Shown: piece by piece, positions 35,110 through 56,625 of the stretch
Position numbering within the stretch: position 1 is the stretch's first letter
Layout: the number at the start of each line of letters is the position of its first letter
NCBI RefSeq assembly: GCF_000717275.1
Contig: NZ_JNYV01000003.1
Coordinates: 124,001-188,000, forward strand
DNA from: Kitasatospora arboriphila
GTDB lineage: Bacteria > Actinomycetota > Actinomycetes > Mycobacteriales > Mycobacteriaceae
Direction: 5' to 3'
Length of the DNA stretch: 64,000 nucleotides
Made by a program: the position numbers and the translations under genes
The notes under the pieces: generated by a model
Databases searched by the model: none
The model's input: only the letters and a program-made list of their open reading frames with translations
Told to the model about the DNA's origin: nothing

Positions 35110-36960
35110 TTACGGAACGAGCGACTGAAGCAATGTTTGAGTCTCGGAATCTGTTGAATACACCGTCATTCCGCGCATTCCTCGAGTAAGAAGCACCTTG
35201 TAGGTGTTGCGGATAGCCCGGTCGAATCCCTCTGGGTTGCCACGCTTGACCTGGTTGTCGTGGTTGTACTCGGGACGCGCCTCCCAATGGTCGGTACGCC
35301 ACACCAGATCGGGCCCAAAGATGACACCGCCGTAGTCATACTCGAAACCCTGTGCGGTATAGACGCATCCGACCTGGTCGAAGCCCGCGGGGTCCGATGC
35401 CCAGTAGGGCGTTCCAGGTGCACCGTCGTGCGACGTTGGCTTCTTGTTGTTCCACGGGCGTTTCCAGTCGCCGATCACGACGTCGTCGACGAGACCGCCG
35501 CCCTTCACCGGATCGCTCCAAGTCCAGCAATAACCGGCTGCAATCCGAGCCGAGTAGCCTTCGTCGAGAAGAGATCTCAGCTGATGTTCGACGAGAGAAG
35601 GCGAATCCGAGACGCGCACCGCGAACGCCTCGTCGCCGGTCCACTTTATGGGGCCACCTGGTTCTAGGCCAAGCAGTCGCAGGACCCAGTTCTCGTACGC
35701 ACGGCTACCGCCGCAACGGAACTGTCCGTCGAGCGAAACCATCCGGACTTTGCAACCCATGCGCTCGGCGGCGCCGCTGATGTCCGAGACGGTGCCACGT
35801 TCGGACGGCCGCACCACCTGGAACTCGTCTAGGAGGAATACGGGAACGCGCGCCGCGTCGATAAGCTCTTCGACCTGTGGACGCCCCGTGCGGAGCGCCG
35901 CTTTCGTATAACGGTTGGTTGAGGTCTCTTTGACCCGGTGAGCCTCATCGTTGATGAGCACGTCGATCTCGTTGGGTTCGGCGTCGATGAACTGGTTGTA
36001 GTATTTGAACATTTGCTTGACCCGGGGCGCACGGGCACCGGCTACTCGACGCAGAGTCATAGTGAAAGCGGAGGATCCAGTGGCGTGCAGAGCAGTTCGG
36101 CCACGCCGCGACAGCTCGCCGAGCAAGCTCAGCGCGATGACAGACTTTCCTGAACCAGGACCGCCGGTGACGATGATGACTTCCTTCGTATTGGACCGGT
36201 ACGACTCGTCGACGGCTCGCAGTACCAACGAGTACGCGGTCTGCTGCTCGTCGAGCAGAACGAATTGCTCGCGGCGTTGGACTTCGTCAGCGGCCAGGGC
36301 CATGAGTTGCTTACTGGGCCGAACGGCCGACGAGAGCAACTGATCGGCGGCGTCGGCACCGGGCTCAGTCGAAAGCTTGCTCTTGAAGTACCTGAGCAGT
36401 TCTCCGCGTCGTTGCCCGGTGAACAAGCGTCCGGTGTCGGATTGGGGGAGCCTCCAGAGGTCTTGGATGTCGGCGTCAGTGGCATTGTGCAGGTATGCGA
36501 CACCCGCTAGCTGATCGGTGCTTCCGCCGAGCGTCGCAATGAAGTCACTCAGGTGGGTGCAGTAGCGGCGGACCTGCTCGACGGGGTGTAGACGCTCGCC
36601 GGCTCCATCGAGCAGCACGACGTCGTCTGTACCCGCGAGAACCGATGCGCTGCCCCATTGCTTGAGCTCGACCACGACGTACGACGGCAGGCCGGTGTTC
36701 GGATGGACTCCACACACGACGGCGTCTGCGCGCTTGCTGGTGAGCGGTAGTTGGTACTCGACGAGAATCTCTGCCTTTTCGAGACCGGCATCGACAAGGT
36801 CGCCGGCCAGCACTGCGAGGCTCCGATCCCAGGAGCGAACCTCAGCAGGTGAGGGGCTGTAGCCGATCTGGAAACGGAACTGTTCGGTCAAGACGGGTAC
36901 GAGACTCCCGGACTCGATCTGAGATCGAACACCAGCGACAGAGTTGCGGTACAACGGCAA
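35110..36960 (-). CDS. DUF2075 nucleoside triphosphatase/helicase fused to PD-(D/E)xK nuclease-like domain
   Basis: 616 residues, start TTG 36960. Residues 1-200 carry a nuclease-like core: RADAVVCGVHP (Asp79) then SYVVVELKQWGS (Glu98-x-Lys100), the D...ExK arrangement of PD-(D/E)xK enzymes. The DUF2075 ATPase follows: Walker A IIVTGGPGSGKSVIAL (266-273), Walker B-like VLINDEAHRVKE (DEAH, 338-341), then later helicase-type motifs (KVRMVSLDGQFRCGGSRAYE, VYTAQGFEYDYGGVIF). This is a helicase-nuclease of the type found in restriction-like defence loci. The start is preceded by a hairpin covering the ribosome-binding site. With the EVE-like gene it forms a two-gene leftward operon. Confidence 0.8.
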   Translation of the reverse strand: MPLYRNSVAGVRSQIESGSLVPVLTEQFRFQIGYSPSPAEVRSWDRSLAVLAGDLVDAGLEKAEILVEYQLPLTSKRADAVVCGVHPNTGLPSYVVVELKQWGSASVLAGTDDVVLLDGAGERLHPVEQVRRYCTHLSDFIATLGGSTDQLAGVAYLHNATDADIQDLWRLPQSDTGRLFTGQRRGELLRYFKSKLSTEPGADAADQLLSSAVRPSKQLMALAADEVQRREQFVLLDEQQTAYSLVLRAVDESYRSNTKEVIIVTGGPGSGKSVIALSLLGELSRRGRTALHATGSSAFTMTLRRVAGARAPRVKQMFKYYNQFIDAEPNEIDVLINDEAHRVKETSTNRYTKAALRTGRPQVEELIDAARVPVFLLDEFQVVRPSERGTVSDISGAAERMGCKVRMVSLDGQFRCGGSRAYENWVLRLLGLEPGGPIKWTGDEAFAVRVSDSPSLVEHQLRSLLDEGYSARIAAGYCWTWSDPVKGGGLVDDVVIGDWKRPWNNKKPTSHDGAPGTPYWASDPAGFDQVGCVYTAQGFEYDYGGVIFGPDLVWRTDHWEARPEYNHDNQVKRGNPEGFDRAIRNTYKVLLTRGMRGMTVYSTDSETQTLLQSLVP

Positions 36961-37384
36961 GACGGCTCCAGGAAGGCATGAAAGTCTTCCCGCACGGGTG
37001 GAGCCTTGTCGTATAGACGCATGCTGTCGGGCCGAAGCGGATTACTGGTCGATCGTATCCGGGAGGTTCTGGTCGCAGTGCTGACCACGGCCTGGCCGCG
37101 TGTCGGGCCGATCCGCTTGTGACCGTCGCTAGCGGCTCCAGCGTGTTCACGCCCCGTCTGGCATGTCATACGAACAGATGAATCGAATGGCAGCTCGCTT
37201 CTGCAATCGGAGCTAAACGCCCTGTCGAGACCAATCTCCGTCGAGAGCAACGGGTTTGCCGACCAGGAAGTCGACCCGGTGTGCGGCAACGACGCCTTCG
37301 TTGAATCGGTCATTTGTCGGTCCGTTCTCATAGACTTCTCACGGCTCGGTCACTTGGCAGAGTCGCGATGCAGGAGGTTTCAAG
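36961..37384. other. 424-nt divergent promoter region
   Basis: No gene is seen here. It separates the leftward nuclease-helicase and the rightward dynamin-like operon and must hold both promoters, but no unambiguous -35/-10 pair was identified. The left end holds a stem-loop (36964-37005). The right end holds the AGGAGG ribosome-binding site (37372-37377) 7 nt before GTG 37385, which fixes the start of the tandem GTPase. Confidence 0.55.
36964..37005 (-). promoter_or_regulatory. Stem-loop that would cover the ribosome-binding site of the nuclease-helicase
   Basis: Two nested stems are visible: GGCTCCA (36964-36970) with TGGAGCC (36999-37005), and GGAAG (36971-36975) with CTTCC (36986-36990), the second separated from the outer stem by an 8-nt bulge on one side only. 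In the minus-strand mRNA the GGAG ribosome-binding site of TTG 36960 lies inside the outer stem, so folding would block translation. This would limit expression of a possibly toxic nuclease. The folding energy has not been calculated. Confidence 0.45.
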
Positions 37385-40300
37385 GTGGATGAGAACGTCC
37401 GGGGGCTGCAGGATGCGGTCGCCCACGCTGTTCGGAGTGGAGAGCGAGAGCTCAGCCAACTCGAACGCTCCGTTGAGACGGTACTGGCAAAATTCCAGGC
37501 GGCGGTGTCAGCTGACAGTGACCAGGGCGACCAACTCATCGTGGATCTGTCGCAGTTCACGGCCGAGTTCGAAAGCGACCTTCGCGGCCACCTGGATGCG
37601 CAACGCGAGCGCCTGGCCACGTTCAACATTGCGTTCTTCGGCCGCACCGGTGCGGGGAAGAGCACCCTGCTTTCTGCTTTCGGTGAGCTCGACGGTGGAT
37701 ATGTCTCACCTGGCGACAGCGACTGGACGACGGATGTCACCGAGATCGAGTGGCAAGGGTGCTCCCTCTGGGATACCCCCGGGATCAACGGCTGGGGACG
37801 GACGCAGAAGCGCGCCGAGCTGGAGGAGACCGCCCGCCAGGCCGTGGAGATCGCGGACGTCGTCCTCCTGTGCTTCGACAACCAGAGCCAGCAGGCCTCC
37901 GAGTTCGGCAAGGTCGCGCAGTGGGTGCAGGCTTACGGCAAGCCGACGATCGCTGTCCTCAATGTCCGCAACCTGCGGTGGCGCCATCCAGCCAAGGTGA
38001 GCAGTCAATCGGCGCGACGGTCGCTCTCGCGTGCTGTCGGCGAACACGCCAACAACATTCGGACGGAGTTGGCAAAAATCGACCTGGGTGGCACGCCGGT
38101 GGTTGCTATTCAGAGCCGGCGGGCGCTCTTTGCTCGCGCGAAGGAACCATTCAATGGTCCAGCCGTCAGCAATTTTAATGCTGATCGCAAACAGTTCGGG
38201 GCTGAATATCTCGCGGAGTGGTCGAACTTTTCTGTGCTGGAAGATCTTATTGCAGCATCGATTGCAGAGGGTGGTGCAGAACTGCGGCAGACGTCGTTGA
38301 GGGAGGGGCTGCGCGGAATATTCGACTCGCGGGCAGCGCGACTCGACTCGATCCGACAGGAAATCGACCCTAGGATTCAATTCGCGGGGAACCGAATCGA
38401 TCAGTTCTTCGACACACTGGGGTACCCAGAGGGCGAATCGCGAGACCGTTATCTAAAGGCCGATGCAAGGTTAGTAACTCTCGTTGAACATGGACGAGGC
38501 GAGCCGTTCACCGCGGCCTCCGCGGGAACGCTCAGCCGCCACTTCGACCACTTGCTGCAGTCGCACTTGTCGAGTGTTCGAGAGGCCACGCTGCGCCGGG
38601 CCGACGAGCTCGTCGATAAGGCGATCGGCGAGAACACACAGTTCACTGACGAAGACTTTCAGTCCGTTTACTCGCCATCTGATCTGCAAACCGCCGTGGA
38701 CAAGATATGGGCAGCGAAGACGGCCTTCCTTCAGCGCGAGATCGAGCTCGCCGTCTCGGAGGTGATACCAGACGTCGCTGAGACGCAAACCGATGGCGTC
38801 ACATTCGACGCCATCTCCGGAACGAGCTCGCGCGCAGGCATGGCACTGCAAGGTGCAGGGTTGGCAGCTGGCGCAGCGGCTGGTGTGATTGCCGTCCCTT
38901 CGGTGGCGGCAATCTGGAATCCAGTCGGCTGGGTCGGAACGTCGACGGCCATCGGGTTGGGCGTGTTCGCCCAGGCGAGCAAGTTTGTAGGCGGGCGACT
39001 GTCCAAACGTGGAGAGGACGGAAGAGCGGTGGCGCGCGCCGAAATCCAACGTGATTCGAGGTCGGCCGTACAGAAGACCTTCGAGTCGATCGAACAGGAC
39101 CTGCGGCGCCAGAATGAAGTTGAAACCTGGAGCCTCGCAGCACCTGTTCTCGTTGAGCTGTTGAAACAGGATCTCGCGCTCCGGCGAAGCAGAACCGAGT
39201 TGGCGACCCTCGTTGATGCTCTGCAGAATCAATCGAACGCCATCACGCACTCGTTCGCGAGCCAAGACGTCCTGGACCGCGCAGCGAGACGCGTTCTTGG
39301 TTCGCGGGGCGTCAAGTCGGGTGCCGAAGCCGACGTCTGGCTTGGAGAGGACTGGTTCGAGCATAACGACGAACGTTCGTCGCAACAGTCTGAGGTGGAT
39401 GCGGCACATCGTGCGACCTTCGCGGCACAACGCGAAACCGAGCGAGACCAACTGCGAGAGTGGCTCGCCGGGGTGTGGCAGGTTAGCTCGCAAAGTGTAG
39501 TGGAGGACTGGCTAGATAGCGTTACGGAACAGCTGGCCTCTGATGATCTCGAATTGCGAAGGGCAATAAGGCAGGTCACGGACAAGGAGCACCCCAAACC
39601 TTCAGTAGTGATCCTGGGCGATTACAGCGCCGGGAAGTCGAGCCTGGTCAAGCGCCTGCTAGTTGAAATGAGCGGATCCATCCCCGACGACTTGCACGTC
39701 CGGGGCAGTGTCGCAACGAGCACCGTCAGCACCTACGAGCTTGACCACATCCGGCTCATCGATACTCCCGGGCTCCAGAGCGGTAAAGCGACCCACGATC
39801 AGCAAGCACTCGAGGCGGCCGCGGGCGCTGCACTGATCTTAGTGGTGGTCCATGTAAACCTACTGATCGGAGACATGGCTCTACTCGAGCGAATCGTGAA
39901 GGGCACCGACGAAACTGTCGCGAAGGATGGTCGGATCCTCTACCTGATCAATAGGTCTGACGAGCTTGGAGTGGATCCGACCTCGTCGCCCGAGGACTAC
40001 CTACTGCTGAGGCGCAGAAAGGCAGACGAACTCATAGCTGCGCTCGGTTCGCGAGGAATTTTGGTCGAGCAGTCTGAGGTCCACGCTCTGGCGGGGGACC
40101 CGTTCGGTGAGGCTGGCGGCCGATTGGACGTCTCGCGAAGCGACTTCGACAGCAACCGCGATTGGGACGGCGTCGACCCAGTCGTGCGAACCCTAGACAC
40201 CTTCTCGAGAAGGCAGTCGCAAGCAGGCAGGACGCGCGCAACTGTCGATGAGGTGTGCAACGCGTTGTTGCGGCGGAGGAAAGAGCTACTGCTCGACGTG

Positions 40301-41185
40301 ACTGGTTTCGAGGCCGAATCGGCGGCGGTTGGGGCAGCGATACAGGCGATCGCGAATGGCGAGCGCGACGCAGAACTACTGGAAACTTCGATGCGCAACC
40401 GGCTCAAGAGAATCCTGGAACCCAATGCGGACAAGGCGCGCATCAGTATTCGCGCTGCAGGGAAGGATGACATGGCGAAGCTCGGCGAGCTGACGGCCGG
40501 TTGGCTGGCCGACCCCCAGTTGACATCTGAGCTGGATCGGTTCAACCGAGGGGTCGCCCAGGACATCGATAGTTGGTTTGCCAAGCACTCTTCCTCGATT
40601 GGACGGCAACTCAATTCGGTTGCACTGGCAGAAGGCGCGGTGCTGGGTGTCGAAGGTGCATTTGTCGGAGTGACCGAAGGCGTCAATGCTGCGAAGGTTG
40701 TGGCGGGGTCCGCACATCACACGGCAAAAATCGCTAAGGCGATTGGCAAACGTGACACGATCTACGGCATCGGTAAGAGCCTGGGCGTCAAGTTCAAGCC
40801 ATGGGGCGCAGTCAAAGCGAGTGGGCGGGTGGCGAAGGCAGCCCCCATCCTTGCTGCGATCGGCACCGTCGCTGACGCGCACGCAATGTACCAAGGCCAC
40901 AAGGCAGGAAACGACCGAGAAGAATCCCGACGTGGTGCGATCAAGTTCGTAGATGACGCCGTCCAGACGGCAGAATCGAAACTATTGTTCGGCACCGACA
41001 ACGAGGGACCAGTTGCGGCCCTTCATGAACGCTCCGGAGTCCTCGCAGATCATCGACGCACACTCGAGAAAGAAAACGACGACATGCTGGCGCTCGTGCG
41101 GGCCGCGTCTACCCAGATCGACCAGATGACCAAACTGCTGGAAGCGGCTAGCGAATTATTTGCCAATGAACGGAGTGCACGGTGA
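37385..41185 (+). CDS. Tandem dynamin-like GTPase (two GTPase domains in one chain)
   Basis: 1266 residues from GTG 37385, with AGGAGG 7 nt upstream. Domain 1: G1 GRTGAGKST (86-94), G3 DTPGI (130-134), a weak G4 (VLNVRNLRW); then about 250 residues with helices and a hydrophobic stretch near residues 485-540 (GMALQGAGLAAGAAAGVIAV and onward) that could insert in a membrane. Domain 2: G1 GDYSAGKSS (about 744-752), G3 DTPGL (about 792), G4 NRSD (about 855), followed by a helical stalk with a second hydrophobic patch (LAEGAVLGVEGAFVGVTEG). This resembles fused bacterial dynamins such as B. subtilis DynA. It overlaps a second GTPase gene (GTGA). Membrane remodelling during phage infection is a plausible role, not proven. 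Confidence 0.75.
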   Translation: MDENVRGLQDAVAHAVRSGERELSQLERSVETVLAKFQAAVSADSDQGDQLIVDLSQFTAEFESDLRGHLDAQRERLATFNIAFFGRTGAGKSTLLSAFGELDGGYVSPGDSDWTTDVTEIEWQGCSLWDTPGINGWGRTQKRAELEETARQAVEIADVVLLCFDNQSQQASEFGKVAQWVQAYGKPTIAVLNVRNLRWRHPAKVSSQSARRSLSRAVGEHANNIRTELAKIDLGGTPVVAIQSRRALFARAKEPFNGPAVSNFNADRKQFGAEYLAEWSNFSVLEDLIAASIAEGGAELRQTSLREGLRGIFDSRAARLDSIRQEIDPRIQFAGNRIDQFFDTLGYPEGESRDRYLKADARLVTLVEHGRGEPFTAASAGTLSRHFDHLLQSHLSSVREATLRRADELVDKAIGENTQFTDEDFQSVYSPSDLQTAVDKIWAAKTAFLQREIELAVSEVIPDVAETQTDGVTFDAISGTSSRAGMALQGAGLAAGAAAGVIAVPSVAAIWNPVGWVGTSTAIGLGVFAQASKFVGGRLSKRGEDGRAVARAEIQRDSRSAVQKTFESIEQDLRRQNEVETWSLAAPVLVELLKQDLALRRSRTELATLVDALQNQSNAITHSFASQDVLDRAARRVLGSRGVKSGAEADVWLGEDWFEHNDERSSQQSEVDAAHRATFAAQRETERDQLREWLAGVWQVSSQSVVEDWLDSVTEQLASDDLELRRAIRQVTDKEHPKPSVVILGDYSAGKSSLVKRLLVEMSGSIPDDLHVRGSVATSTVSTYELDHIRLIDTPGLQSGKATHDQQALEAAAGAALILVVVHVNLLIGDMALLERIVKGTDETVAKDGRILYLINRSDELGVDPTSSPEDYLLLRRRKADELIAALGSRGILVEQSEVHALAGDPFGEAGGRLDVSRSDFDSNRDWDGVDPVVRTLDTFSRRQSQAGRTRATVDEVCNALLRRRKELLLDVTGFEAESAAVGAAIQAIANGERDAELLETSMRNRLKRILEPNADKARISIRAAGKDDMAKLGELTAGWLADPQLTSELDRFNRGVAQDIDSWFAKHSSSIGRQLNSVALAEGAVLGVEGAFVGVTEGVNAAKVVAGSAHHTAKIAKAIGKRDTIYGIGKSLGVKFKPWGAVKASGRVAKAAPILAAIGTVADAHAMYQGHKAGNDREESRRGAIKFVDDAVQTAESKLLFGTDNEGPVAALHERSGVLADHRRTLEKENDDMLALVRAASTQIDQMTKLLEAASELFANERSAR

Positions 41186-42783
41186 GCAGCTTAGTCGTCG
41201 AGGCAGCGAAAAAATGGCTTGATGAGGTCCCCGGTGGCCCTCTGGCGAAAGAGTTTGAAACGCAGTGGGCTGAGTTCAATGCCGAATCGAAGCCAGTGGT
41301 CACGGTCTTTGGCTCGTACGACACCGGTAAGAGCAGTCTGATCCGCCGGCTGCTCGTCGATGCAGGGGCCGACGTGCCGGAATGGCTGACCATCAGCGCG
41401 CGGCACGAGACCTTCGAGGTGCGTGGCGTCGAGCTAGCGGGCTGCGTCATTCGGGACACACCAGGTCTCGCAGTTGGGGCCCACGACGTTCGAGGCGAGA
41501 CCAATACCCGGCTCGCGCATGAAGCCATCGGACTGACAGATATTGCGATCGTGACGGTGACTCCACAGCTCGCCACGGGAGAACACGAGCAAATTCGTAA
41601 ACTCATCAGCAATGGATGGCCGACCGATGGACTATGGTTCGCAATTTCGCGTTTCGATGAAGCCGGTCGCGATCCAGACAGCGATCTCGACGGGTATCAC
41701 GAACTCGCGCAGCGTAAGACTGCTGAGCTGCGCGAATCGCTCGGCCTGCCTGACGACACGCCGGTATTCGTAGTTGCCCAGGATCCTTTCCAGTTTGCAG
41801 GAGCGGACCGGGACGTGGAGCGTGACATCTGGGATGACTCCCGCGAGTGGGACGGGATGAACGACCTGTTCGGAGCGATTGAGCGTGTCGGTCAGGACGG
41901 TGCGGGCCCTCTGCGAGCGGCCGCGGAGCAGCGTTTTTGGGCCCAGGCGGTGGCTTCGGTAGCTAACGAGCTTAGTGCTCAGCTGCCCGAGTTTGAAGTG
42001 GCCGCGGCTGCAGCGCGTGACGTCGAAAGCCGTAGGGATCAATGGATGACTGCGCTGGCTGATGCAGATTCCGCTGCTAGAGCTGGCCTGAAAGGTGCTA
42101 TCCAGGAGGCGATTCGGTTCGCATCAGTGAACCCAGAAAGTACGCAGGAGCAAATCGTGTCGGCGATTGAGTCTTCTCTCGACGAATGGTATCGGCGGGT
42201 TGGCCAGGCAGTTGATCTCCTTCTACAGGATGTCGAGAAGTCAGCTGACCGGCGACGCACGGAGCCGTCGTGGCAGCGGCTCGACGCGTTGGTCGCGTCC
42301 GCCGTCGGAAGGCAGGCTGCTAAAGAGGCCCCGGACGTCACTCGTTTAGGGCCGATTCTCTCCAAAATGGGACCGAAACTCATATCGAACTTGATCGAGG
42401 TCGACCGTCTGATTCAGAAGCGCTCAGGGCCAAAAACCACCCCGGGACCCTCTTCCCAGAAGGCCCGTAGCTGGTCGCAGAGTGACACCGAGAAGGCCGC
42501 CAAGATGATTCTTACGGTCGCGATAGAAATAGCTAAGTTGATCGACGACCTGCGTTCCAAGCGTGCAACGGCCAATCATGCACGCGAGCAGGCGCGAGCG
42601 TTGAATGATCAACTCGAGTCCGACGCCACTAGCGTCGCGCTGGGCGAGTGGCAGCAAATCGTCGACCAAGCACGCGAAGCTATTGAAAACGCGACAGCAG
42701 AAGCAGAACTGGCCCCGAGCCTCAGCGAGGAGGTCGAGGTAATCCGCAGGGCGATCACCAACGCTGATGAGCTAACCGCTTAA
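41182..42783 (+). CDS. Second dynamin-like GTPase
   Basis: 533 residues starting at GTG 41182, overlapping the stop of the tandem GTPase by four bases. G1 is VFGSYDTGKSSLIRRL (44-51) and G3 is RDTPGL (92-96); the G4 position reads ISRFDEAG, giving an FD where TKxD/NKxD is usual. The remainder is a long helical region (for example SLDEWYRRVGQAVDLLLQD and AREQARALNDQLESDA). It resembles the second domain of the tandem protein more than other GTPases. Translational coupling predicts a two-protein complex, the arrangement of paired bacterial dynamins such as LeoA/LeoBC. Confidence 0.78.
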   Translation: MSSLVVEAAKKWLDEVPGGPLAKEFETQWAEFNAESKPVVTVFGSYDTGKSSLIRRLLVDAGADVPEWLTISARHETFEVRGVELAGCVIRDTPGLAVGAHDVRGETNTRLAHEAIGLTDIAIVTVTPQLATGEHEQIRKLISNGWPTDGLWFAISRFDEAGRDPDSDLDGYHELAQRKTAELRESLGLPDDTPVFVVAQDPFQFAGADRDVERDIWDDSREWDGMNDLFGAIERVGQDGAGPLRAAAEQRFWAQAVASVANELSAQLPEFEVAAAAARDVESRRDQWMTALADADSAARAGLKGAIQEAIRFASVNPESTQEQIVSAIESSLDEWYRRVGQAVDLLLQDVEKSADRRRTEPSWQRLDALVASAVGRQAAKEAPDVTRLGPILSKMGPKLISNLIEVDRLIQKRSGPKTTPGPSSQKARSWSQSDTEKAAKMILTVAIEIAKLIDDLRSKRATANHAREQARALNDQLESDATSVALGEWQQIVDQAREAIENATAEAELAPSLSEEVEVIRRAITNADELTA

Positions 42784-42831
42784 CGCGCTGGAAGCTCACA
42801 CCTTACGAGACTGGACTGACTGGAGACGTGA

Positions 42832-43524
42832 GTGGAATCGGACGGCGGCGACGACCCTCTTGAGGACGTCGTTCCGAAAGTAGTCTATTGGAACGCGGTT
42901 TGTGATCCTGCTGAAGGCATTACGTCGAAGGAGCGTGATCGAATCGCGGACCTTGCATACCGCGGTCAGTGGAAGGAACTCATCGCGGCGATCGATTCGA
43001 TCGAACCTTACAACGTTCTCGCAGGAGTGAACTCGACCAGGATCGGTAGTAAGTCGCACTTCACGCCCTTGCATCAGGCAGCGTGGGCAGGCAACGCAGA
43101 GGCGTGCAGTGAGCTAATTGAGCGCGGAGCCTGGCGGACTGTCCAGACAAGTGATGGAAAGCGACCGATAGACGTTGCCGTCGAGCGGGGGCATGCTCCG
43201 CTGGAGCGAATCTTGACGCCGGAACCGATTTACACTCCTGGCGATGAAGCGCTGAGCCTACTTCAACGCGGTCTCGACTTCGTGTTGAATGCGGAGTTGT
43301 TGAGATGGCGGAAGTTTCCGCTCCGGTATCCTCAGGTGAGCGTCCTCACTGAGATCTCAGCTCTGTCACTGTGGTTTTCGGTGCCCGGAATGTTTGGCGG
43401 GTTTCAGTTGACGCTTGAACGCGGTCCCAGCGTTCATGTTGACGCATCGAGCCGTATGGGCGGATCTGAGCTGTACCGCGTAAACCTGAATAGCATCGAC
43501 TTTCTCGGCCATGAGGGCTACTAG
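42832..43524 (+). CDS. Ankyrin-repeat protein
   Basis: 230 residues from GTG 42832, preceded by TGGAGA. Residues 78-100 form a textbook ankyrin unit (TPLHQAAWAGNAEACSELIE), with a weaker unit at 110-128 (KRPIDVAVERGHAPLERIL) and a possible degenerate one at 37-56. The C-terminal 100 residues form a separate beta-rich domain (FSVPGMFGGFQLTLERGPSV) not recognised. It begins 48 nt after the second GTPase in the same direction, so it is probably the third member of that operon, acting as an adaptor or inhibitor. It ends convergent with mcrC, the two stop codons sharing a CTAG tetranucleotide. Confidence 0.75.
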   Translation: MESDGGDDPLEDVVPKVVYWNAVCDPAEGITSKERDRIADLAYRGQWKELIAAIDSIEPYNVLAGVNSTRIGSKSHFTPLHQAAWAGNAEACSELIERGAWRTVQTSDGKRPIDVAVERGHAPLERILTPEPIYTPGDEALSLLQRGLDFVLNAELLRWRKFPLRYPQVSVLTEISALSLWFSVPGMFGGFQLTLERGPSVHVDASSRMGGSELYRVNLNSIDFLGHEGY

Positions 43525-44804
43525 GCGCTCTCAGCCCCGTCGTCAGGAGTCATCGCGAGCCAAGTCCGGAGGGATTTCCTGAAGCTTTCCAAGGGAATCT
43601 GGTCGCCGCCCGAGAGCGCAGCGATGATTGCTCGGATAGGTAGCGGGTGCACGTGAACCTCTGCAAGCACGCGACCGTCGGGTTGAAAACGGATGGTTCG
43701 TGGTGCTTCAGATCCCATGCTCGGATAGATCAGCATTGATCGCGGAACCGGACCCCAGCCGGGGTACGCCTGAGCATAGGTGGTGAGCTGGTACAGGTCG
43801 TTCGGCGAGAGTGAATTGCCATCGTAGCGTTTGTACTTGGCGTCAATAGCGCACGAGCGGAGGCCATCGGAGATCCGTATGTCTGGTCGAATCGCGAAAC
43901 TGTCAGTATCGGATCGGAAAACAGTTGAGTCGTCGGCCTGGGGATGCGCCACTAAGCCAGCAGGCAATGACAAGCGGACTAACGTGGTCACAAACCGTTC
44001 GAACAGACGATTCATGTCGACCAGAAACGCCTGTGCCCGCGCGTGTCCAACGTCGAACATGTTGTTTAGGAAGCTATTCTCCAACACGGCCATTGACCAG
44101 GTCAGCGCAGTTCGGTAGCGTTCGTTACGCCGATCGTATTGCAGCGTGCGTCGTACCACTTCTGGACTCGGTGGTTGCGTGGGGGCAGACCCGAAGAAGT
44201 CTTCGTACACCCGGCCGGTCGCGGTTCGTCGCTCGGCGTTGGACGTGAGGCGTCGGGCCACACCGAGAGCGGCCGCCGTGACCCTATTTTCGAGGATGTC
44301 CGTGTCGAACTCTTCGTAGTTGCACGCGAGCGTGTTGAGCACGCCGAACTTTCGCAACGCTTGTTCCCTGAGATCAAGGCGGCCGCGCATATAGGGGAGA
44401 TCGTCCTGGGCCGATCTGTAGCCGGCGAGTAGGCCCTGCCGATGCACATCGTTTGCAGCATCCGTCAGGAAGCGGGCCAACAGCTCAGGGAGGGAATCGA
44501 CTTTGCCCGGCGAGTGATGATTCTCGAGCGAGTCGAGGACATCATACGAGTTCCCCTCTGCGACTGCGATCATCGCTAGCACGTCGAGTTCGCTACCGGC
44601 AAGCTTTGGGACGACCCTCAAGGGTCCAACCCCGGGTACATCAACGGAGCCAACCCACTGCGTCGCAGTAACTTCGACGCGGTCCTGTGCGAGCCAGCGC
44701 AGTTTGATTTTGTTTTCGAGTCGAGCGGTAGCCGCCGACATCTCGTGCTGGCGCGAGGGCAGGACCTCGAATGTGTCGCTCTTGTACTCAATGAGCGTCC
44801 TCAT
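43521..44804 (-). CDS. mcrC: McrC: nuclease subunit of a McrBC-type modification-dependent restriction enzyme
   Basis: 427 residues; ATG 44804 overlaps the mcrB stop (ATGA). The N-terminal domain (TQWVGSVDVPGVGPLRVVPK) matches the McrC interaction domain. The C-terminal nuclease core is FAIRPDIRISDGLRSCAIDA then KYKRYDGNS, with Asp, Asp and Lys in the PD-(D/E)xK arrangement. McrC joins the McrB ring, stimulates its GTP hydrolysis and cuts DNA carrying modified cytosines. Being at the 3' end of the BREX operon implies co-expression. Confidence 0.9.
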   Translation of the reverse strand: MRTLIEYKSDTFEVLPSRQHEMSAATARLENKIKLRWLAQDRVEVTATQWVGSVDVPGVGPLRVVPKLAGSELDVLAMIAVAEGNSYDVLDSLENHHSPGKVDSLPELLARFLTDAANDVHRQGLLAGYRSAQDDLPYMRGRLDLREQALRKFGVLNTLACNYEEFDTDILENRVTAAALGVARRLTSNAERRTATGRVYEDFFGSAPTQPPSPEVVRRTLQYDRRNERYRTALTWSMAVLENSFLNNMFDVGHARAQAFLVDMNRLFERFVTTLVRLSLPAGLVAHPQADDSTVFRSDTDSFAIRPDIRISDGLRSCAIDAKYKRYDGNSLSPNDLYQLTTYAQAYPGWGPVPRSMLIYPSMGSEAPRTIRFQPDGRVLAEVHVHPLPIRAIIAALSGGDQIPLESFRKSLRTWLAMTPDDGAESA

Positions 44805-46870
44805 AGGGGGTTATCGACCCCGTACTCGGCCGCTAACAGATCCACCAACTGTTCGTCGTCAACCGGTACCAGCCGCTGGCCGGGAGCGTCAACGAGCGAT
44901 TGCCCCAAAAACTGTGCGAGCTGGGCGTAGTCGTCGTGGGCCAGCTCCTGCAGGAGGGGGATTACCTCCAGGCGCACGACCTGTGCGAAATCAACGGGGT
45001 CGCTGATCGGCTCGCCTTTATGCATGAAGTAAGCATGACCAATCTGGCGATCGCGCCCAGCGTAATCGGTGATCCTCTTGTTGAGGTCATCGAGAAAGAG
45101 ATCCAGCGCCAGAATGGTCGAGCCATACGACGCTTGACCTTCGAGCACGGACGAGTCAGGGAGAATCTCTTCGAACGCAAACCTGCGACGCAGCGCAGCA
45201 TCGAGGGTGCGAATGGAACGATCTGCTGTGTTCATTGTACCGATGATGAAAAGATTTTCGGGGACTGAGAACGGCTTCTGACTCGTTGGCAGCAAGACCT
45301 CAGTTCCACGTTTGTCAGCTTCGATCACTGTCATTAGTTCGCCGAAAACCCTTGGCAGGTTTGCGCGGTTGATCTCGTCGATGATCAAGAAGAACGTTTT
45401 CTCTGGTGACTTCGCAGCATCCGCGCAGACAAGCTTGAAGATGCCGTCGGTACGAGCAAGTCTCAACCCGCCGGCGTTACTTGCGTCCTCGATCGGCCGG
45501 TATCCTTCGACGAACTCCTCGTAGGTATAGGAGGCGTGGAAGGTGACGGGTGTGACTGTCCCAGGCGTCGGGCCGTCGCTATTCTGTTCGCCATACCACC
45601 GGGCGAATCGCACAGCGCTGTAGGTCTTCCCTGTTCCGGGCGGACCGTACAGGATCAGTTGCTTCTTGCGTTCGAGTGCCTTGGCCCACTGCGAGTACCG
45701 GACTTCCTCAGCGTCGGTGTAGTCAGGCAGTTCGACGGATTCCTTCTCCGCTGCCGGATCTGCTCCATCGGTCTCTAGAATGCGGGCGACATCCTTGGCC
45801 TTCAGAGTTTGAAACGTGCTACGCCAGCCGCCGAAGCCCGGATCGAGCTTCCGTGCATGGGTGGTATCCCAGTCGACTGCGACTGTGTGCTGATATTGAT
45901 CGCGTTCGGGCAGATACTGGTAGCCGTCTGCAAGGACGGTGCCCACGCCGAGAATCTCAGCCGTTCCTCGATTGGCGACGACGTGATTGCCCGGTTTCAA
46001 GTTCCGAAACTTCCAGATGTTCTTGGCAGCTAGAAGATTCTGGCGGTCCGTGTTCTGTGGATAGGTGCGGGCGAATGCTTTTGAGAACTCGTCGAACGTG
46101 TCATACAGGGACAGGTCACCAAGTTCATCCCAGCCGATGCAGATGTACTCGCCCTCCAAGCAGTCTTGCCAGGCGGATGCCTGCTCACCGGGGGCGACCT
46201 TGAGGTAGACGCTTGACTCTGTTTGGTTGCCGCGGCCTCTCTCTGAAGGTGGCCTCCAACCCTCAAGGAGAATCATTCGCTGGAATCCGTCGACACTCGA
46301 AAGTTCTGGGTAGGTCTGCAGCGCAGCGTTGAGAGCCCTGTTGAGGGCGATCGGAGATTGATCGGGCTCGATGCCGAGCGCACGCGCATAGTGCCTCAAC
46401 CGTGAGCCCGCAAAGACCGGAAAGATCTCGTCGGGGAAGTAGATGTGCAGCGCCTTTAACACAACCAGTGACCACACGCCGGTGACGCTATGCGTTGCAG
46501 CTTCACCCCATTCGCCGGCAGCAGCGAGGTCGAAGAGCGCCGCGAAGTCCGACCTGATGCTGGACCACGCCTTATCGAGCGTGGCGAAGTTCTTCGGGAA
46601 CTTCCAGTCGCCGTCGTTGTGGTAGAAGATCCCGAACTTGTACGCACTCCCTCCCGAGATGCTTCCGATCTGCTTGGTCGCGGTCTCGAGGGCGTAGCTG
46701 AAACTCTGCTTCGAAGTCCCCGTCCCCAGTGCGTACCGGTTGAGGTCGAGAGTTGGCCAATCAGCGAGCGGGAAGCGCGTCGCGACCGACTCGCGCATCG
46801 CTTTATTTGTTGCCAGTTCGGTGTCCGAGCACTGGTGCAGCCCTTCATTAATCGCTTCCTGCAACTCCAA
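44801..46870 (-). CDS. mcrB: McrB: AAA+ GTPase with N-terminal EVE/PUA-like domain
   Basis: 689 residues; start TTG 46870 with GAAGGAGGAG 8 nt upstream. Residues 1-200 are a helical domain of unknown type. Around 225-345 there is an EVE/PUA-like segment (EYICIGWDELGDLSLYDTFD, KFRNLKPGNHVVANRGTAEI, ILGVGTVLADGYQYLP) that would read modified bases. The AAA+ motor has Walker A LILYGPPGTGKTYSAV (about 408), Walker B FFLIIDEINRANLPRVFGEL, and the McrB-specific MNTADRSIRTLDAALRRRF. Overlap with mcrC and a 35-nt gap from brxHI put it in the BREX transcript. Confidence 0.9.
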   Translation of the reverse strand: MELQEAINEGLHQCSDTELATNKAMRESVATRFPLADWPTLDLNRYALGTGTSKQSFSYALETATKQIGSISGGSAYKFGIFYHNDGDWKFPKNFATLDKAWSSIRSDFAALFDLAAAGEWGEAATHSVTGVWSLVVLKALHIYFPDEIFPVFAGSRLRHYARALGIEPDQSPIALNRALNAALQTYPELSSVDGFQRMILLEGWRPPSERGRGNQTESSVYLKVAPGEQASAWQDCLEGEYICIGWDELGDLSLYDTFDEFSKAFARTYPQNTDRQNLLAAKNIWKFRNLKPGNHVVANRGTAEILGVGTVLADGYQYLPERDQYQHTVAVDWDTTHARKLDPGFGGWRSTFQTLKAKDVARILETDGADPAAEKESVELPDYTDAEEVRYSQWAKALERKKQLILYGPPGTGKTYSAVRFARWYGEQNSDGPTPGTVTPVTFHASYTYEEFVEGYRPIEDASNAGGLRLARTDGIFKLVCADAAKSPEKTFFLIIDEINRANLPRVFGELMTVIEADKRGTEVLLPTSQKPFSVPENLFIIGTMNTADRSIRTLDAALRRRFAFEEILPDSSVLEGQASYGSTILALDLFLDDLNKRITDYAGRDRQIGHAYFMHKGEPISDPVDFAQVVRLEVIPLLQELAHDDYAQLAQFLGQSLVDAPGQRLVPVDDEQLVDLLAAEYGVDNPL

Positions 46871-46905: not shown

Positions 46906-49002
46906 TCAGTCGGACGTCGTCCTAACGATCCTTCGACTATCGCTCATGACCCTCTGCGCGTGTGGGATATCGCCAAGTCTGGCGGCGAGTGTTTGTTTCG
47001 CGAGCTCGGGCGGAAGCGCGGCCGCGAACTTCAGACCGCGCACGGCGTTGGTGTCGACAAACGGCTCGCTCCAAGTGACGTCCCGCAGCGCGCCTGAGAT
47101 GTCGTCGATGGACAAACCTGGTAGCAACCGTATCGATTTCTCATCGATTCGCTGGCGCGGATCAACGATCGTGGGCAGTGATGCTTGCAAGGTACGGTTC
47201 GTCGCGGTGCCGGCCCACGTCCACCATCGCCCCGATGAACCATCGGGGAGGAGCAAAACGAAGTATTCGAGGTTGACTGCGTCTGCGAAACCGTCTCGCA
47301 CTTCAGACACCATCTTGATGGCCCGACTCGTTAGCGTGACGCCGGCAGGTAGTTGGCCGAGCAGCACCTCGCGCATACCGCGGGCGATATCGAATGACAG
47401 GCTTTGGCCGGCACCTGACCACTTAGCCCGGCCACCAGACTTTTCCGGTTCGACGAAACATCGCCGGCGCTGCCAATCCACGTGTGTGACAGACCATGAG
47501 CGGCCGCCCAGTAGCAAAAGCCTTGGTCCTGAGACCTCTTCGGTAAGTACGTCGGTTCCGATCGTTCCGACCTCGTTGCGGCCGGCGAGCACTACGAACT
47601 CTGGTGGTGCGCTAAAGACGGCGGTCAAGTCAGAGAAGTATCGCCGACCAAAACGTCGTTCAGCTTCCGGTCCGATCTGCCAGAAGTCTCCATCGCGCTC
47701 GAAGAACCCTGCTTCTTCGAGAAATTGTGCGATCTCGTCATGCGAATCGTCGAAAGCAGGGAGGTTTCCCCACCACTCGCGCCATGTCCGCGTGCCGATT
47801 TTATGCTCTTGTAGACACAGGGCCATCAGCTGCTGAGCAGCAATGTGCCGAGGGTGGGGCGGCGATACAATCGGCTCGATCCAGCCCTGTGACCACCGGT
47901 TCAACATTCCCAAGCACAGGAGGGTCGACTCGTCGCTGAGACACAGAAACAGGCAGTTGCGTACACCGCCCGACCGTCGGCCGGTTCTGCCTAAGCGCTG
48001 CAAGAACGAAGCGACAGACGTAGGAGAGTCGATCTGGATGACTCGATCGAGGTCGCCGATGTCAATGCCCAGCTCGAGAGTCGATGTCGCCACGATTACC
48101 GTGTCGCGTGCATCAGCGAACGCGGCTTCTGCGGTACGTCTTTCAGCGGCAGACAACGACGAGTGTGAGATGAAGGTCGTCACGCCCTTCGCTAGGAGCG
48201 CTGATCCAAGTTCCTCTGCTTTCCGCCGGCTGTCGACGAACACCAGACGCTTCTCGCCGCTGTGGAGCCTAGCGATAATCGTGGCGGCGTTGGCCAGCGA
48301 ACCCACGTAGTCCACTGTGATGTCAGGCGTGGCCGCAACGACATCGGAGGCGGGCTGAACCAGTCGTCGGGGTCGGGCGATGTAGCTACCTTGCAGCCAG
48401 CCCAAGAGATGGTCCGGATTTCCGACTGTCGCAGACAACCCGATCCTCTGGATCTCTCTCCCGGCCAGCCGCGAAAGCCTCTCGAGGACCGCTAACAGGT
48501 GCCAACCGCGATCGTCGCCGGCGAAGGCGTGAATCTCATCTATAACGACGGCACGGAGCCCGGAGAACATCACTCGCGCATCTACTTTGGTGGACACGAG
48601 CATGGACTCGAGCGACTCTGGCGTGGTCAGGAGAATATCCGGACGTTTAGCGAGTATTTGCTGCCGCTGAGCCTGGGTTGTGTCGCCGTGCCACACCGCC
48701 GCAGAACGCCCGAGCCAGCTTGCATACTGCTGCAATCGTGGGGTGAGGTTGTTCAGTAGTGCGCGTAGCGGGCACACGTAGAGAACCGAGATGCCGTCCC
48801 ATTCGTTCGCTGCCATCGCGGACAACAGCGGGAAGGCCGCAGCCTCGGTCTTGCCGCCTGCCGTGGGCGCGAGCACCAGAACGTCGGATCCGCTCAGTAT
48901 CGGATCGACGGCGTCTGCCTGAGTGGGCCGTAGTCCATTCCACCGCAGGGTGTTTGCCAAGTGGTACTGAACACCGGGATGAAGGCGGTCAAACGGGTCC
49001 AT
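46906..49002 (-). CDS. brxHI: BREX type 2 helicase BrxHI (Lhr-like DExH helicase)
   Basis: 698 residues, ATG 49002 sharing one base with the brxD stop (TAATG). Superfamily 2 motifs are complete: the Q-like GLRPTQADAVD, Walker A APTAGGKTEAA (45-52), DEIH (155-158), and the second RecA motifs TSTLELGIDIGDLDRVIQID and LGRTGRRSGG. The C-terminal about 250 residues are an Lhr-like extension. It is the sixth gene of the type 2 BREX order, where BrxHI is the predicted helicase. Confidence 0.88.
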   Translation of the reverse strand: MDPFDRLHPGVQYHLANTLRWNGLRPTQADAVDPILSGSDVLVLAPTAGGKTEAAAFPLLSAMAANEWDGISVLYVCPLRALLNNLTPRLQQYASWLGRSAAVWHGDTTQAQRQQILAKRPDILLTTPESLESMLVSTKVDARVMFSGLRAVVIDEIHAFAGDDRGWHLLAVLERLSRLAGREIQRIGLSATVGNPDHLLGWLQGSYIARPRRLVQPASDVVAATPDITVDYVGSLANAATIIARLHSGEKRLVFVDSRRKAEELGSALLAKGVTTFISHSSLSAAERRTAEAAFADARDTVIVATSTLELGIDIGDLDRVIQIDSPTSVASFLQRLGRTGRRSGGVRNCLFLCLSDESTLLCLGMLNRWSQGWIEPIVSPPHPRHIAAQQLMALCLQEHKIGTRTWREWWGNLPAFDDSHDEIAQFLEEAGFFERDGDFWQIGPEAERRFGRRYFSDLTAVFSAPPEFVVLAGRNEVGTIGTDVLTEEVSGPRLLLLGGRSWSVTHVDWQRRRCFVEPEKSGGRAKWSGAGQSLSFDIARGMREVLLGQLPAGVTLTSRAIKMVSEVRDGFADAVNLEYFVLLLPDGSSGRWWTWAGTATNRTLQASLPTIVDPRQRIDEKSIRLLPGLSIDDISGALRDVTWSEPFVDTNAVRGLKFAAALPPELAKQTLAARLGDIPHAQRVMSDSRRIVRTTSD

Positions 49003-50282
49003 TACAGATCCACGTCGATGTCGCCAGCGGTCAGTGCTTCGCGCTCCGCGTCGGACAATTCGCCGTCTGCAATGGAGATCTCGTAATGCTGGTATGGGTC
49101 GAAGTCGTCGAACTGCTCGATTTTGTCGAGTACGTCCACAAGCTTTCGCAGGAACAGGCGCGGCGCGATACCCACCCTGCCGCCCAGATGGCCGGCAACG
49201 GATGTCGCAAACCGCTCGATGAACTCATCGTCTGCAACTGTCTGCACCCGTTCCGGATTATTCAGCCCGGTGACGAACAAATCCCGAACGCGACGGCCCA
49301 GTTCCACTAGCCGTTCGGTCGTGAAGCCGGTGAGACGGATCTGTGGTGCACGTGGATTGTCGAACCGCGGATCGCTGGAGAACTCGGTGTGCAGCCGATC
49401 GGCCAACGGAGGCAGTAGGGAAATCCCCTGCCTGCCTTCGAAAAATGCAGGGGTACCGGTGATCATCAGGTAAAGACCAGGGAAGCTGCCATCATGAACC
49501 TCGTCGACAAGCTGTCGGAGCGCGTTGAGGGCCTTCGCTCGAGCGTCGCTCCGTATGCGTTGGAGGGTCTCGACTTCGTCGAGAACTAGGAGGAGTCCGG
49601 CATACCCCGAGTCAGCCAGGACCGCGAGCAGCCCACGCAAAAAACCTAGGGCGAGAAAGTGGTCGAGGTCCCCGCGGATACCGGCACGTCGTTTGATCGA
49701 TGCTGCGACATGCGGCTGGCCACCGAGCCATGCGACCAATCCTTCCGCGCCGCTTTCGTCACCCTCGTCGACGAATTTGCGGTACGCACGGATTGCAATG
49801 GGAAATATGGGGGCGTGGGTCGCCACGGAAGCGAGACGACGCTCCAGCAGGACATCTGGATCTGTATTTTGTTGCTCGGCATCGGATTCGATGGTGAACA
49901 ACCAGGAGTCAAGGATCGGCCGCAGCGCGCTAGGAGGAACGGAGGCTGTGCGGAGCGACTCAATGCTGCGCCGGTACACCGTCTCCAGCTTGTGGAGCGG
50001 AGTGTCAATCTCATTGATTTGCACTTCCGCGACCGCGAACCGGTTTTTCATTGCCCGGTCGGCCATCCATCGGGCGAAAAACGTCTTGCCAGAACCGTAT
50101 TCGCCTCGAACGGCCTTGAAGACGCCACCTCCGCCGGCAACGACCTGCAGTTCGTTGTCCATCTCTTGCTCGAACCGTCCGAGACCCACCGCCAGTTGGT
50201 CGAGACCGTTTGACGGCACGGTCCCTCGACGCAATGCATCGAGGATCTCCCGCCGCCGTCGTGCCGAGACGGGGGGAGTCAT
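49002..50282 (-). CDS. brxD: BREX ATP-binding protein BrxD
   Basis: 426 residues starting ATG 50282 in ATGA overlap with pglZ. Walker A is RGEYGSGKTFFARWM (60-67) and Walker B is LLLVLDEVETLQRIRSDARA. The rest follows the BrxD pattern (TEFSSDPRFDNPRAPQIRLT, GGRVGIAPRLFLRKLVDVLD). It is a cytoplasmic P-loop ATPase of type 2 BREX, placed as expected between pglZ and brxHI. Confidence 0.88.
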   Translation of the reverse strand: MTPPVSARRRREILDALRRGTVPSNGLDQLAVGLGRFEQEMDNELQVVAGGGGVFKAVRGEYGSGKTFFARWMADRAMKNRFAVAEVQINEIDTPLHKLETVYRRSIESLRTASVPPSALRPILDSWLFTIESDAEQQNTDPDVLLERRLASVATHAPIFPIAIRAYRKFVDEGDESGAEGLVAWLGGQPHVAASIKRRAGIRGDLDHFLALGFLRGLLAVLADSGYAGLLLVLDEVETLQRIRSDARAKALNALRQLVDEVHDGSFPGLYLMITGTPAFFEGRQGISLLPPLADRLHTEFSSDPRFDNPRAPQIRLTGFTTERLVELGRRVRDLFVTGLNNPERVQTVADDEFIERFATSVAGHLGGRVGIAPRLFLRKLVDVLDKIEQFDDFDPYQHYEISIADGELSDAEREALTAGDIDVDL

Positions 50283-55900: not shown

Positions 55901-56625
55901 CGGTCGAGATCGATGTACGTTGCCGTCTCGACGAACGAGCCGAAGTAGCTGGAGACCAGTACCGAGATGAGTTCTCGCCGGAGCGGATCCTCTGCGGGAG
56001 CGTTCAAAGCCTCCTGATAGCGCCCCAGATCCCAGGCGCTGTCGACGAGCCCACCCCAGTCGTCATCGTCCGCACCACCTCCCAGTCCCGCGACGAACTG
56101 ATCGTCACCCATCGTGGCGCGCAACTTTTCCGCGTCTGCCAGCAGTGAGTCAGAAATGTGGAGCGCAGGAAGCGGCGCGGTGGGGTGTAAGCGCCGGATC
56201 TGCTCGATGTATCCCTGGAACACTGCCTGTTCGAGGCTCTTCGCGCCCAGCAAGTGGTACGTCAGTCGAAGAACTTTCTTGCCGGCGATCGTTCCGTCGT
56301 ACCTGCCCGTGAGCGGCTGGAAGGCGGGCGTCCGAATCGCTGGGTGATTGCCGAGCAGAGCGTAAAGAACTGCCATGAAGTGGCTTTTGCCTGAGCCAAA
56401 CGAGCCAACTAGGTAGGCAGCACGCGATGTGGATTTGCTAAGGGCGTTGCCCACGAGCTCGATCGCAGACTCGAAATTGCTGATGAGCGAATCAGTCAGT
56501 ACGTAGTCATCGAGTGTGGCCCGGATGTGTGCGTCGTCGTCGGTGCTGTCCGTGAGCCGCAGCACGTAGTCGTTGCTGTCGGCGCGCTCGGGGATGTCGA
56601 TGACGTCACGTAGCAGGACACTCAT
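52978..56625 (-). CDS. pglY: PglY: large P-loop ATPase of type 2 BREX
   Basis: 1215 residues starting at ATG 56625, overlapping the pglX stop by ATGA; in-frame codons further upstream give an implausible His/Pro/Thr-rich leader and lie within pglX. Walker A is YLVGSFGSGKSHFMAVLYAL (74-82) and Walker B VVLFLDELMLWLGFAV. The very large size and position between pglX and pglZ are those of PglY, the type 2 counterpart of BrxC. It is a cytoplasmic ATPase with undefined substrate. Confidence 0.9.
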   Translation of the reverse strand: MSVLLRDVIDIPERADSNDYVLRLTDSTDDDAHIRATLDDYVLTDSLISNFESAIELVGNALSKSTSRAAYLVGSFGSGKSHFMAVLYALLGNHPAIRTPAFQPLTGRYDGTIAGKKVLRLTYHLLGAKSLEQAVFQGYIEQIRRLHPTAPLPALHISDSLLADAEKLRATMGDDQFVAGLGGGADDDDWGGLVDSAWDLGRYQEALNAPAEDPLRRELISVLVSSYFGSFVETATYIDLDRGLVVLSEHARDLGYDAVVLFLDELMLWLGFAVRDAAFFSRESSKLTKLVESSGRSRAIPLVSFISRQMDLRKWFADSGASGAEQEAFDRNVEYQQGRFREIELGDDNLAEVAQKRLLRPRDEASAAVLDEAFANLTRSSDVWDVLRDSVNATDRHKGASEKDFRMTYPFSPVLVSTLRNLSSVMQRERTALKVMQKMLVDRRDTITVDDLIPVGDSFEYIVEGGDPIDLHAANMFRAAADLYRTKLLPALMAKHSVTAEQLDTDPSSVPTGFRGQDRIAKTLLLAAIAPKVPALQDVDSARLAALNHGSIKARLAGGESRVVLGVVREWSQKDVPEISLTGTENPVIRVQLTDVDYQSVLDRIRGEDRPGQRRQLLRKLIHEALGVRGDQDNLLGAATRTIVWRGSRREVDIVFGNVRDSASLPDSSFDNRTGTWRVIIDYPFDETGYSSNDDVKRIDGLVSRGIKRQTIVWLPRFFSERALDDFALLVKLDWLFTGADTRWTENSDHLSAGDRAQAQGILNNLYSGTLTAFTSLLRQAYGIDPHDDTMFIDDASPSDILTSLSPDFTPAMPPAADLEDALVKIADQAYSAVYPSHPAFDPTGDEVTARQLETVRDYVEQASSHREGRVPTLPGTDRKAVRRIAGPLRVGQATEDHYLFGEQTFAYWAQELDRAANAAGDPLTVGTLQAHVDSMSPAWGLRPETRDLVISAWVLLRKRSWFEAGTAVPAPKLGQLRPHIELRAEDLPEQDKWDAARAVATRLLGYTSARTFLTGANTADFAAQVRKQAATKFEGIGQLEQQLARGYAESGCDASDGDRLIAVRGLRGFADQLNAQAGAVELINQLAAFQIGIPIETAGRILSEASRDSAALSSFQYDLLIPLRTALRESEPRDDEAHSIASALVNAVSITGRSLADELKRVEKRLVRWLVGPRDTKSGSEKVRSDADVEKVAEVLRELLQNKTKNINVTWKYE

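What the first reader, a model, noticed from the sequence alone, without database searches (positions are those of the whole stretch)
37385..43524. Three-gene dynamin-like operon with an ankyrin protein inside a defence island
A 1266-residue protein with two GTPase domains, a second 533-residue GTPase overlapping it by four bases, and an ankyrin protein 48 nt further on form one operon. The pair recalls bacterial dynamins (B. subtilis DynA, LeoA/LeoBC, the latter reported as antiphage under the name Eleos). The ankyrin partner and the fused-plus-separate GTPase arrangement are not part of what I know of those systems. Its position between a nuclease-helicase operon and BREX/McrBC argues for defence.
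Basis: partly seen in the sequence, partly recalled or inferred. Interest (0 to 1): 0.78.

Follow-up and report, generated by a model that had tools for sequence, protein, structure and literature searches.

The report
Eleos-type dynamin defence operon, three-GTPase form
The two big GTPase genes are a known kind of bacterial anti-phage dynamin system in a rearranged, widely conserved three-module form, while the ankyrin gene beside them is a local neighbour that is not a regular part of it.

Summary
The genes are real and where stated. Protein 1 is LeoBC fused to LeoA; protein 2 is another LeoA (PADLOC E 5e-162, 4e-84, 8e-101). This is the Eleos dynamin kind with three GTPase modules instead of two. 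The form is not a local oddity: in 36 of 38 fused loci from public genomes the second GTPase gene follows directly, and a Nostoc plasmid has it too. The second GTPase, LeoA2, is one clade (100/99), lacks the LeoA paddle motif (0 of 41; fused LeoA 35 of 40), has a shifted G4 motif and folds most like LeoA. The ankyrin gene sits there in 1 of those 36, Williamsia muralis; a Gordonia Leo-McrBC junction lacks it, and 0 of 18 relatives elsewhere lie near Leo genes. It is under purifying selection: a working gene, most likely a defence-island passenger. Best reading: an Eleos subtype that remodels membrane on infection, with paddle-less LeoA2 as regulatory partner. Function is inferred; I found no phage test of this form.

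The parts
37372..37377 (+). AGGAGG, Shine-Dalgarno-like, 7 nt before the GTG start of the fused gene
   Evidence: sequence
37385..41185 (+). LeoBC-LeoA1 fusion, 1266 aa
   Evidence: PADLOC LeoBC 7-627 E 5.4e-162 and LeoA 710-1199 E 3.9e-84
37640..37663 (+). P-loop of the LeoBC module (GRTGAGKS, residues 86-93)
38858..38914 (+). most hydrophobic 19-residue stretch of the helical part of the LeoBC module (residues 492-510), possible membrane tip
   Evidence: hydropathy; tip role inferred from LeoB/BDLP1
39617..39640 (+). P-loop of the fused LeoA1 module (GDYSAGKS, residues 745-752)
40679..40882 (+). DLP_helical (PF18709) match, residues 1099-1166, the LeoA paddle region
   Evidence: residues 1069-1193 align with LeoA 4AUR 393-511
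40790..40804 (+). KFKPW motif of the LeoA paddle (residues 1136-1140)
41182..42783 (+). LeoA2, 533 aa, LeoA paralogue without the paddle motif; 4-nt overlap with the fused gene
   Evidence: PADLOC LeoA E 7.5e-101; tree; fold, best Foldseek PDB match LeoA 4AUR
41311..41334 (+). P-loop of LeoA2 (GSYDTGKS, residues 44-51)
42832..43524 (+). ankyrin-fold protein, 230 aa (ankyrin-like 32-130, C-terminal strands 179-228); neighbour seen beside Leo genes only here and in W. muralis
35110..36960 (-). Schlafen-group-3 helicase gene, divergent upstream neighbour (context, not part of the system)
   Evidence: PF09848 E 6.9e-82
43521..46870 (-). McrC and McrB-like genes, convergent neighbours (context)
   Evidence: McrBC PF10117, AAA_5
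46906..63858 (-). BREX genes brxHI, brxD, pglZ, brxC, pglX, pglW (context)
   Evidence: PADLOC

Best explanation
The first two genes are an Eleos-kind bacterial dynamin system in a three-module form. LeoBC (with a hydrophobic stretch like a membrane tip) and LeoA1 (with the LeoA paddle) are fused into one two-headed protein, and a second LeoA without the paddle motif (LeoA2) is made from the overlapping next gene. Shown: family identity by profile, predicted dynamin fold of LeoA2, conserved pairing, absence of the paddle motif in LeoA2. Inferred: the fused protein works at the inner membrane with two membrane-touching tips on one chain. LeoA2 joins it through GTPase heads or trunks and controls when it assembles or hydrolyses GTP. 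On phage-caused membrane disturbance the complex polymerises and remodels the membrane, limiting phage release or ending the infection. The ankyrin gene is a defence-island passenger that happens to follow this operon in two Williamsia genomes; it may modulate the system there but is not needed for it.
For: PADLOC LeoBC/LeoA matches for both proteins, and for one two-gene Bacillota pair (L051), the Nostoc pair and the two-gene pair L117. LeoA paddle region with KFKPW aligned to solved LeoA 4AUR. LeoA2 model: GTPase plus long helical trunk, mean pLDDT 80.3, best Foldseek match LeoA, then BDLP, DRP1, a bacterial dynamin pair (5owv), SynDLP, IniA and mitofusin. Pair kept in 36 of 38 loci, plus L113, L114, L115 and Nostoc plasmid locus L104. 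LeoA2 is one clade, 100/99, LeoA1 beside it, two-gene LeoA outside. Paddle motif in 35 of 40 LeoA1, 5 of 5 two-gene LeoA, 0 of 41 LeoA2. Relatives of the window's own defence genes in 10 of 38 loci; the most recurrent flanking genes are a BrxHI-related helicase cluster (5 of 38 loci) and McrC and McrB (4 of 38 each). A two-headed dynamin, B. subtilis DynA, delays phage lysis (PMC8844932, passages). Ankyrin gene in 1 of 36.
Against: I found no phage-challenge result for this three-module form. LeoA of E. coli was tied to vesicle release, and LeoA alone was not seen to bind lipid (PMC4159319, passages), so a non-defence envelope role is open. The defence-neighbour excess over ankyrin loci is not significant (10 of 38 against 1 of 18, Fisher p 0.08, or p 0.14 without L013). 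LeoA1 as one clade has weak support (61/44), so the order of duplication and fusion is unsettled. Five of 40 LeoA1 (L032, L104, L113, L114, L115) lack the motif, and one, L113, has no recognised P-loop. VIA-align places lone GTPase domains above LeoA.
Confidence: 0.62

Rival explanations
1. A genuine three-gene system in Williamsia: the ankyrin protein is a sensor, adaptor or brake for the dynamins, gained once in this genus.
For: Same strand, 48-nt gap, GGAG before its GTG; no terminator-like site listed in the gap, and the one promoter-like match on + lies inside leoA2 and is within chance (1 found, 1.6 expected). Kept in both genomes known to have it there, with dN/dS 0.12. Ankyrin fold suits protein binding. 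Some relatives sit in other defence settings: near BREX genes in L086 and after hsdS in a Deinococcus plasmid.
Against: Absent from 35 of 36 pairs examined, among them Williamsia sp. CHRR-6 (L015). Absent at the Gordonia amicalis junction with the same McrBC (L045). No match in whole genomes of 7 of 7 other Leo carriers tested. No LeoA2 in 18 of 18 genomes with ankyrin relatives (the same query finds 6 of 6 carriers). Its dS (0.75) resembles McrB (0.67), not the Leo genes (0.21, 0.24).
Confidence: 0.18
2. The dynamins serve the host envelope (membrane repair, vesicle release, stress) and lie in the island by chance or as cargo.
For: LeoABC in E. coli affected vesicle contents (PMC4159319, passages). 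DynA gathers at membrane damage and IniA colocalises with membrane lesions (PMC8844932, passages).
Against: Patchy presence (5 of 101 relatives, own genome included; only the own genome among 396 across the phylum by the whole protein; 8 of 296 by the LeoBC profile), plasmid carriage in one case, changing flanks and defence neighbours fit a mobile defence cargo better than a core envelope gene.
Confidence: 0.15
3. Within the Eleos reading, abortive rather than protective action: the fused two-tip dynamin permeabilises the membrane on infection and LeoA2 holds it inactive until then.
For: LeoA2 has no paddle motif and a changed G4 motif, as expected of a regulatory subunit, and is encoded directly downstream in 36 of 38 loci.
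Against: No toxicity data; DynA, a tested two-headed protein, delays lysis instead (PMC8844932, passages).
Confidence: 0.25

Closest known systems
Eleos (LeoA + LeoBC) anti-phage system
   Same: Both LeoBC and LeoA profiles match strongly, neighbouring genes with a 4-nt overlap, defence-island setting. Eleos is reported as enriched in Rhodococcus (PMC10482375, passages).
   Different: LeoBC is fused to a LeoA, and a second LeoA without the paddle motif follows; the Bacillota pairs L051-L053 and actinobacterial L117 have two separate proteins. That Eleos was tested as a two-gene system is recalled; the original paper is not held.
Bacillus subtilis DynA
   Same: Two dynamin modules on one chain; reported to delay phage lysis (PMC8844932, passages).
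   Different: The modules here are LeoBC and LeoA by profile, a third GTPase gene follows, and presence is patchy. DynA was not compared by sequence here.
LeoA/LeoB/LeoC of enterotoxigenic E. coli
   Same: LeoA paddle region with KFKPW motif; LeoA is the best Foldseek match of LeoA2.
   Different: There LeoB and LeoC are two genes and LeoA is single (PMC4159319, passages); here LeoBC is whole and fused to one LeoA, with a second LeoA.
bacterial dynamin pair of PDB 5owv/5oxf (Campylobacter DLP1/DLP2; the organism is recalled)
   Same: Two different dynamins working as a pair (entry title); fold match to LeoA2.
   Different: Separate proteins as recalled, no fusion; no defence role seen in what I read.

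Membership tests
Eleos | a LeoBC homologue | tested here: met
   PDLC03841 E 5.4e-162, residues 7-627
Eleos | a LeoA homologue encoded next to it | tested here: met
   PDLC03839 E 7.5e-101 for the 533-aa protein, 4-nt overlap
Eleos | dynamin fold (GTPase plus helical trunk) | tested here: met
   LeoA2 model and Foldseek search; LeoA1 paddle region to 4AUR. The fused protein itself was not folded (over the length limit).
Eleos | protects against phages | not testable with these tools
Eleos, two-gene architecture | one LeoBC protein and one LeoA protein, unfused | tested here: not met
   LeoBC-LeoA fusion plus extra LeoA; so filed as a variant, not as the two-gene form
DynA-type two-headed dynamin | two dynamin modules on one chain | tested here: met
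DynA-type two-headed dynamin | sequence relationship to DynA | not tested
   no DynA sequence was fetched; not filed there
   1 of 36 pairs, W. muralis; 0 of 18 the other way

The most novel reading that the evidence does not exclude
An ancient LeoA duplication created a separate class of dynamin defence machine: LeoBC and LeoA1 on one chain, with the membrane paddles, and LeoA2 as a paddle-less, G4-shifted regulatory GTPase that triggers or restrains it. In Williamsia an ankyrin protein has been added as a further sensor or brake.
Probability: 0.2. Interest if true: 0.62.

Novelty: new variant of a known kind. Interest (0 to 1): 0.42.

Why it matters
Bacterial dynamins are often encoded in pairs, and why is not settled. 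A natural form with three GTPase modules, one on its own and without the membrane paddle motif, separates membrane contact from GTPase control and makes the division of labour testable by deletions. It also suggests that profile searches label as plain Eleos a set of operons with a different build, and it takes the ankyrin gene off the list of likely core parts.

Tried and rejected
Ankyrin as a core partner: rejected on co-occurrence.

Ankyrin as a polymorphic-toxin immunity protein: considered from memory. The nearest genes at 18 loci, listed by a rough gene picker, and at three annotated plasmid loci (two Kitasatospora, one Deinococcus) showed no recurring toxin gene to my eye; the Burkholderia record carries no gene annotation there. 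Only the eight picked proteins and seven were scanned with Pfam. Recurring neighbours seen: an ADP-ribosylglycohydrolase (2 of 18: L087, L097) and an SMC-like ATPase or a weak match to its N-terminus (2 of 18: L086, L087).

A conserved third gene of another kind: clustering 237 flanking ORFs within 4 kb at the 38 loci gave eight clusters present in three or more loci, the largest in 5 of 38; none is a candidate core partner (one search was read by eye and its output was cut at about L027-L036).

Full report
What is there. PADLOC profiles read the first protein as LeoBC (residues 7-627, E 5.4e-162) followed by LeoA (710-1199, E 3.9e-84), and the second as LeoA (residues 9-526, E 7.5e-101). Pfam finds the two GTPase domains of the first, its DLP_helical segment and the single GTPase of the second. 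The island around it holds a Schlafen-group-3 helicase gene, McrBC and a BREX set.

How widespread is the pair? A scan of a collection of 84,980 species genomes with an alignment of five fused proteins gave 45 loci. Of these, 38 (L013-L050) are of the fused kind, three (L051-L053, Bacillota) are the two-gene kind, and four (L054-L057) are GTPase matches without the rest. In 36 of the 38 the LeoA2 gene follows directly; L042 ends 19 nt after the LeoBC-side ORF and L047 is a 521-aa piece. In 20 of the 36 the overlap is exactly 4 nt when the first start is taken. In one of the 36 (L045) the fused gene is frame-broken. By whole-genome search the fused protein is in 5 of 101 genomes of the relatives set, the own one included, and in 1 of 396 across the phylum, that one being the own genome. 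The LeoBC profile finds 8 of 296 in the class: five of the eight are fused with LeoA2 next door, one (G1023) is the two-gene form, one (G978) showed only a LeoA-like ORF to my profiles, and one (G973) nothing in a stretch cut by the contig end. A mobilizable Nostoc plasmid carries the same fused-plus-separate pair. L119 is a second copy of the L021 genome, and L013, L015, L019 and L026 are the same genomes as G007, G025, G028 and G037 (matching contig lengths), so those are not independent.

What flanks it? Relatives of the window's own BREX, McrBC or Schlafen genes lie in 10 of the 38 loci, against 1 of 18 ankyrin loci; the difference is not significant (p 0.08). Of 237 flanking ORFs within 4 kb, the clusters found in most loci are a helicase cluster that includes BrxHI relatives (5 of 38), McrC and McrB (4 of 38 each) and PglW relatives among those in 3 of 38. 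No third gene recurs in more than 5 of 38.

What distinguishes LeoA2? In a GTPase-domain tree of 96 rows LeoA2 is one clade (42 rows, 100/99), LeoA1 is beside it (40 rows, one side of a branch but weak, 61/44), and the five two-gene LeoA lie outside both. L113_A1 had no recognised P-loop and was left out of the tree; the L119 duplicate was left in. The F-[KRQ]-P-W paddle motif is in 35 of 40 LeoA1 and 5 of 5 two-gene LeoA, and in 0 of 41 LeoA2, 0 of 40 LeoBC and 0 of 4 two-gene LeoBC, L119 left out (a stricter pattern gave 27 of 40 and 4 of 5). The position of the G4 motif reads N in 29, G in 9 and T in 2 of 40 LeoA1, followed by RxD; S in 38 of 41 LeoA2; and NxRN in 39 of 40 LeoBC. The P-loop Lys and the DxPG motif are kept in every row of the three sets; one LeoA1 has lost a P-loop Gly. 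So LeoA2 looks like a nucleotide-binding partner that does not touch the membrane by a LeoA paddle.

The ankyrin gene. It is a working gene: against Williamsia muralis NBRC 105860 its dN/dS is 0.12, like the Leo genes. Its dS is 0.75, closer to McrB (0.67) than to the Leo genes (0.21 and 0.24), which hints at separate recent histories (one pair of genomes only). It lies beside the GTPases in 1 of 36 pairs, or 1 of 34 with at least 1.5 kb of downstream sequence, and that one is W. muralis; a permissive tblastn over 49 Leo loci finds it only there. Williamsia sp. CHRR-6 (L015) has the pair without it. In Gordonia amicalis the Leo genes run straight into a 77-89% identical McrBC with no ankyrin gene between. 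Profile searches at E up to 1e-20 found relatives in 22 of 401 genomes of the family and 6 of 296 of the class, the own genome included; I pulled 18 of the 24 carriers other than the two Williamsia. None of the 18 has Leo genes in the stretch fetched (11-20 kb each) or LeoA2 anywhere in the genome (the same query finds 6 of 6 known carriers). None of 7 other Leo-carrying genomes has an ankyrin relative (the same profile does find both Williamsia). Some relatives are in defence settings: near BREX genes in L086 and after hsdS in a modification operon of a Deinococcus grandis plasmid. Others overlap the end of an ADP-ribosylglycohydrolase gene (L087, L097) or lie among other, mostly unscanned genes. 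The model shows an ankyrin fold of about three repeats plus C-terminal strands.

How it probably works. The Eleos mechanism is not known to me beyond the name and its parts (recalled; the original paper is not held). DynA, a two-headed dynamin, delays phage-induced lysis (PMC8844932, passages). LeoA and LeoBC were proposed to work in concert, and LeoA alone was not seen to bind lipid (PMC4159319, passages). From the anatomy I infer a membrane-bound LeoBC-LeoA1 chain with two tips, gated by LeoA2, acting on the membrane late in infection or as an abortive response. Which of the two cannot be told here.

Verdict. A conserved three-module variant of the Eleos kind: likely labelled Eleos already by profile tools, since both profiles match, and not described in this form in the papers I could find. 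The ankyrin gene is most likely a neighbour.

Noticed in passing
35110-36960 (-): Schlafen-group-3 DNA/RNA helicase gene, 98% identical in W. muralis with dS 0.43 and dN/dS 0.02, the lowest dN/dS of the eight genes compared.
   Followed up: partly
L045 2002-7455 and 7575-10736: Gordonia amicalis carries the same Leo-McrBC junction without the ankyrin gene; its fused Leo gene is frame-broken, and its McrB matches in three frames.
   Followed up: partly
L126 1962-6528: Ankyrin relative of Deinococcus grandis overlaps the end of an hsdS gene by 4 nt in an hsdM, DUF1016/PDDEXK nuclease, hsdS operon on a plasmid.
   Followed up: partly
L087 8417-10171 and L097 8451-10021: Ankyrin relatives overlap the end of an ADP-ribosylglycohydrolase gene; in L087 the ankyrin match is split over two ORFs.
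   Followed up: partly
L104 6004-13167: Nostoc plasmid pn6 carries the fused-plus-separate Leo pair beside a protelomerase-family gene.
   Followed up: no
46906-63858 (-): BREX set with PglW, PglX, BrxC, PglZ, BrxD and BrxHI; in W. muralis the BrxHI beside the same McrBC is only 61% identical, suggesting that the BREX part has been exchanged.
   Followed up: no
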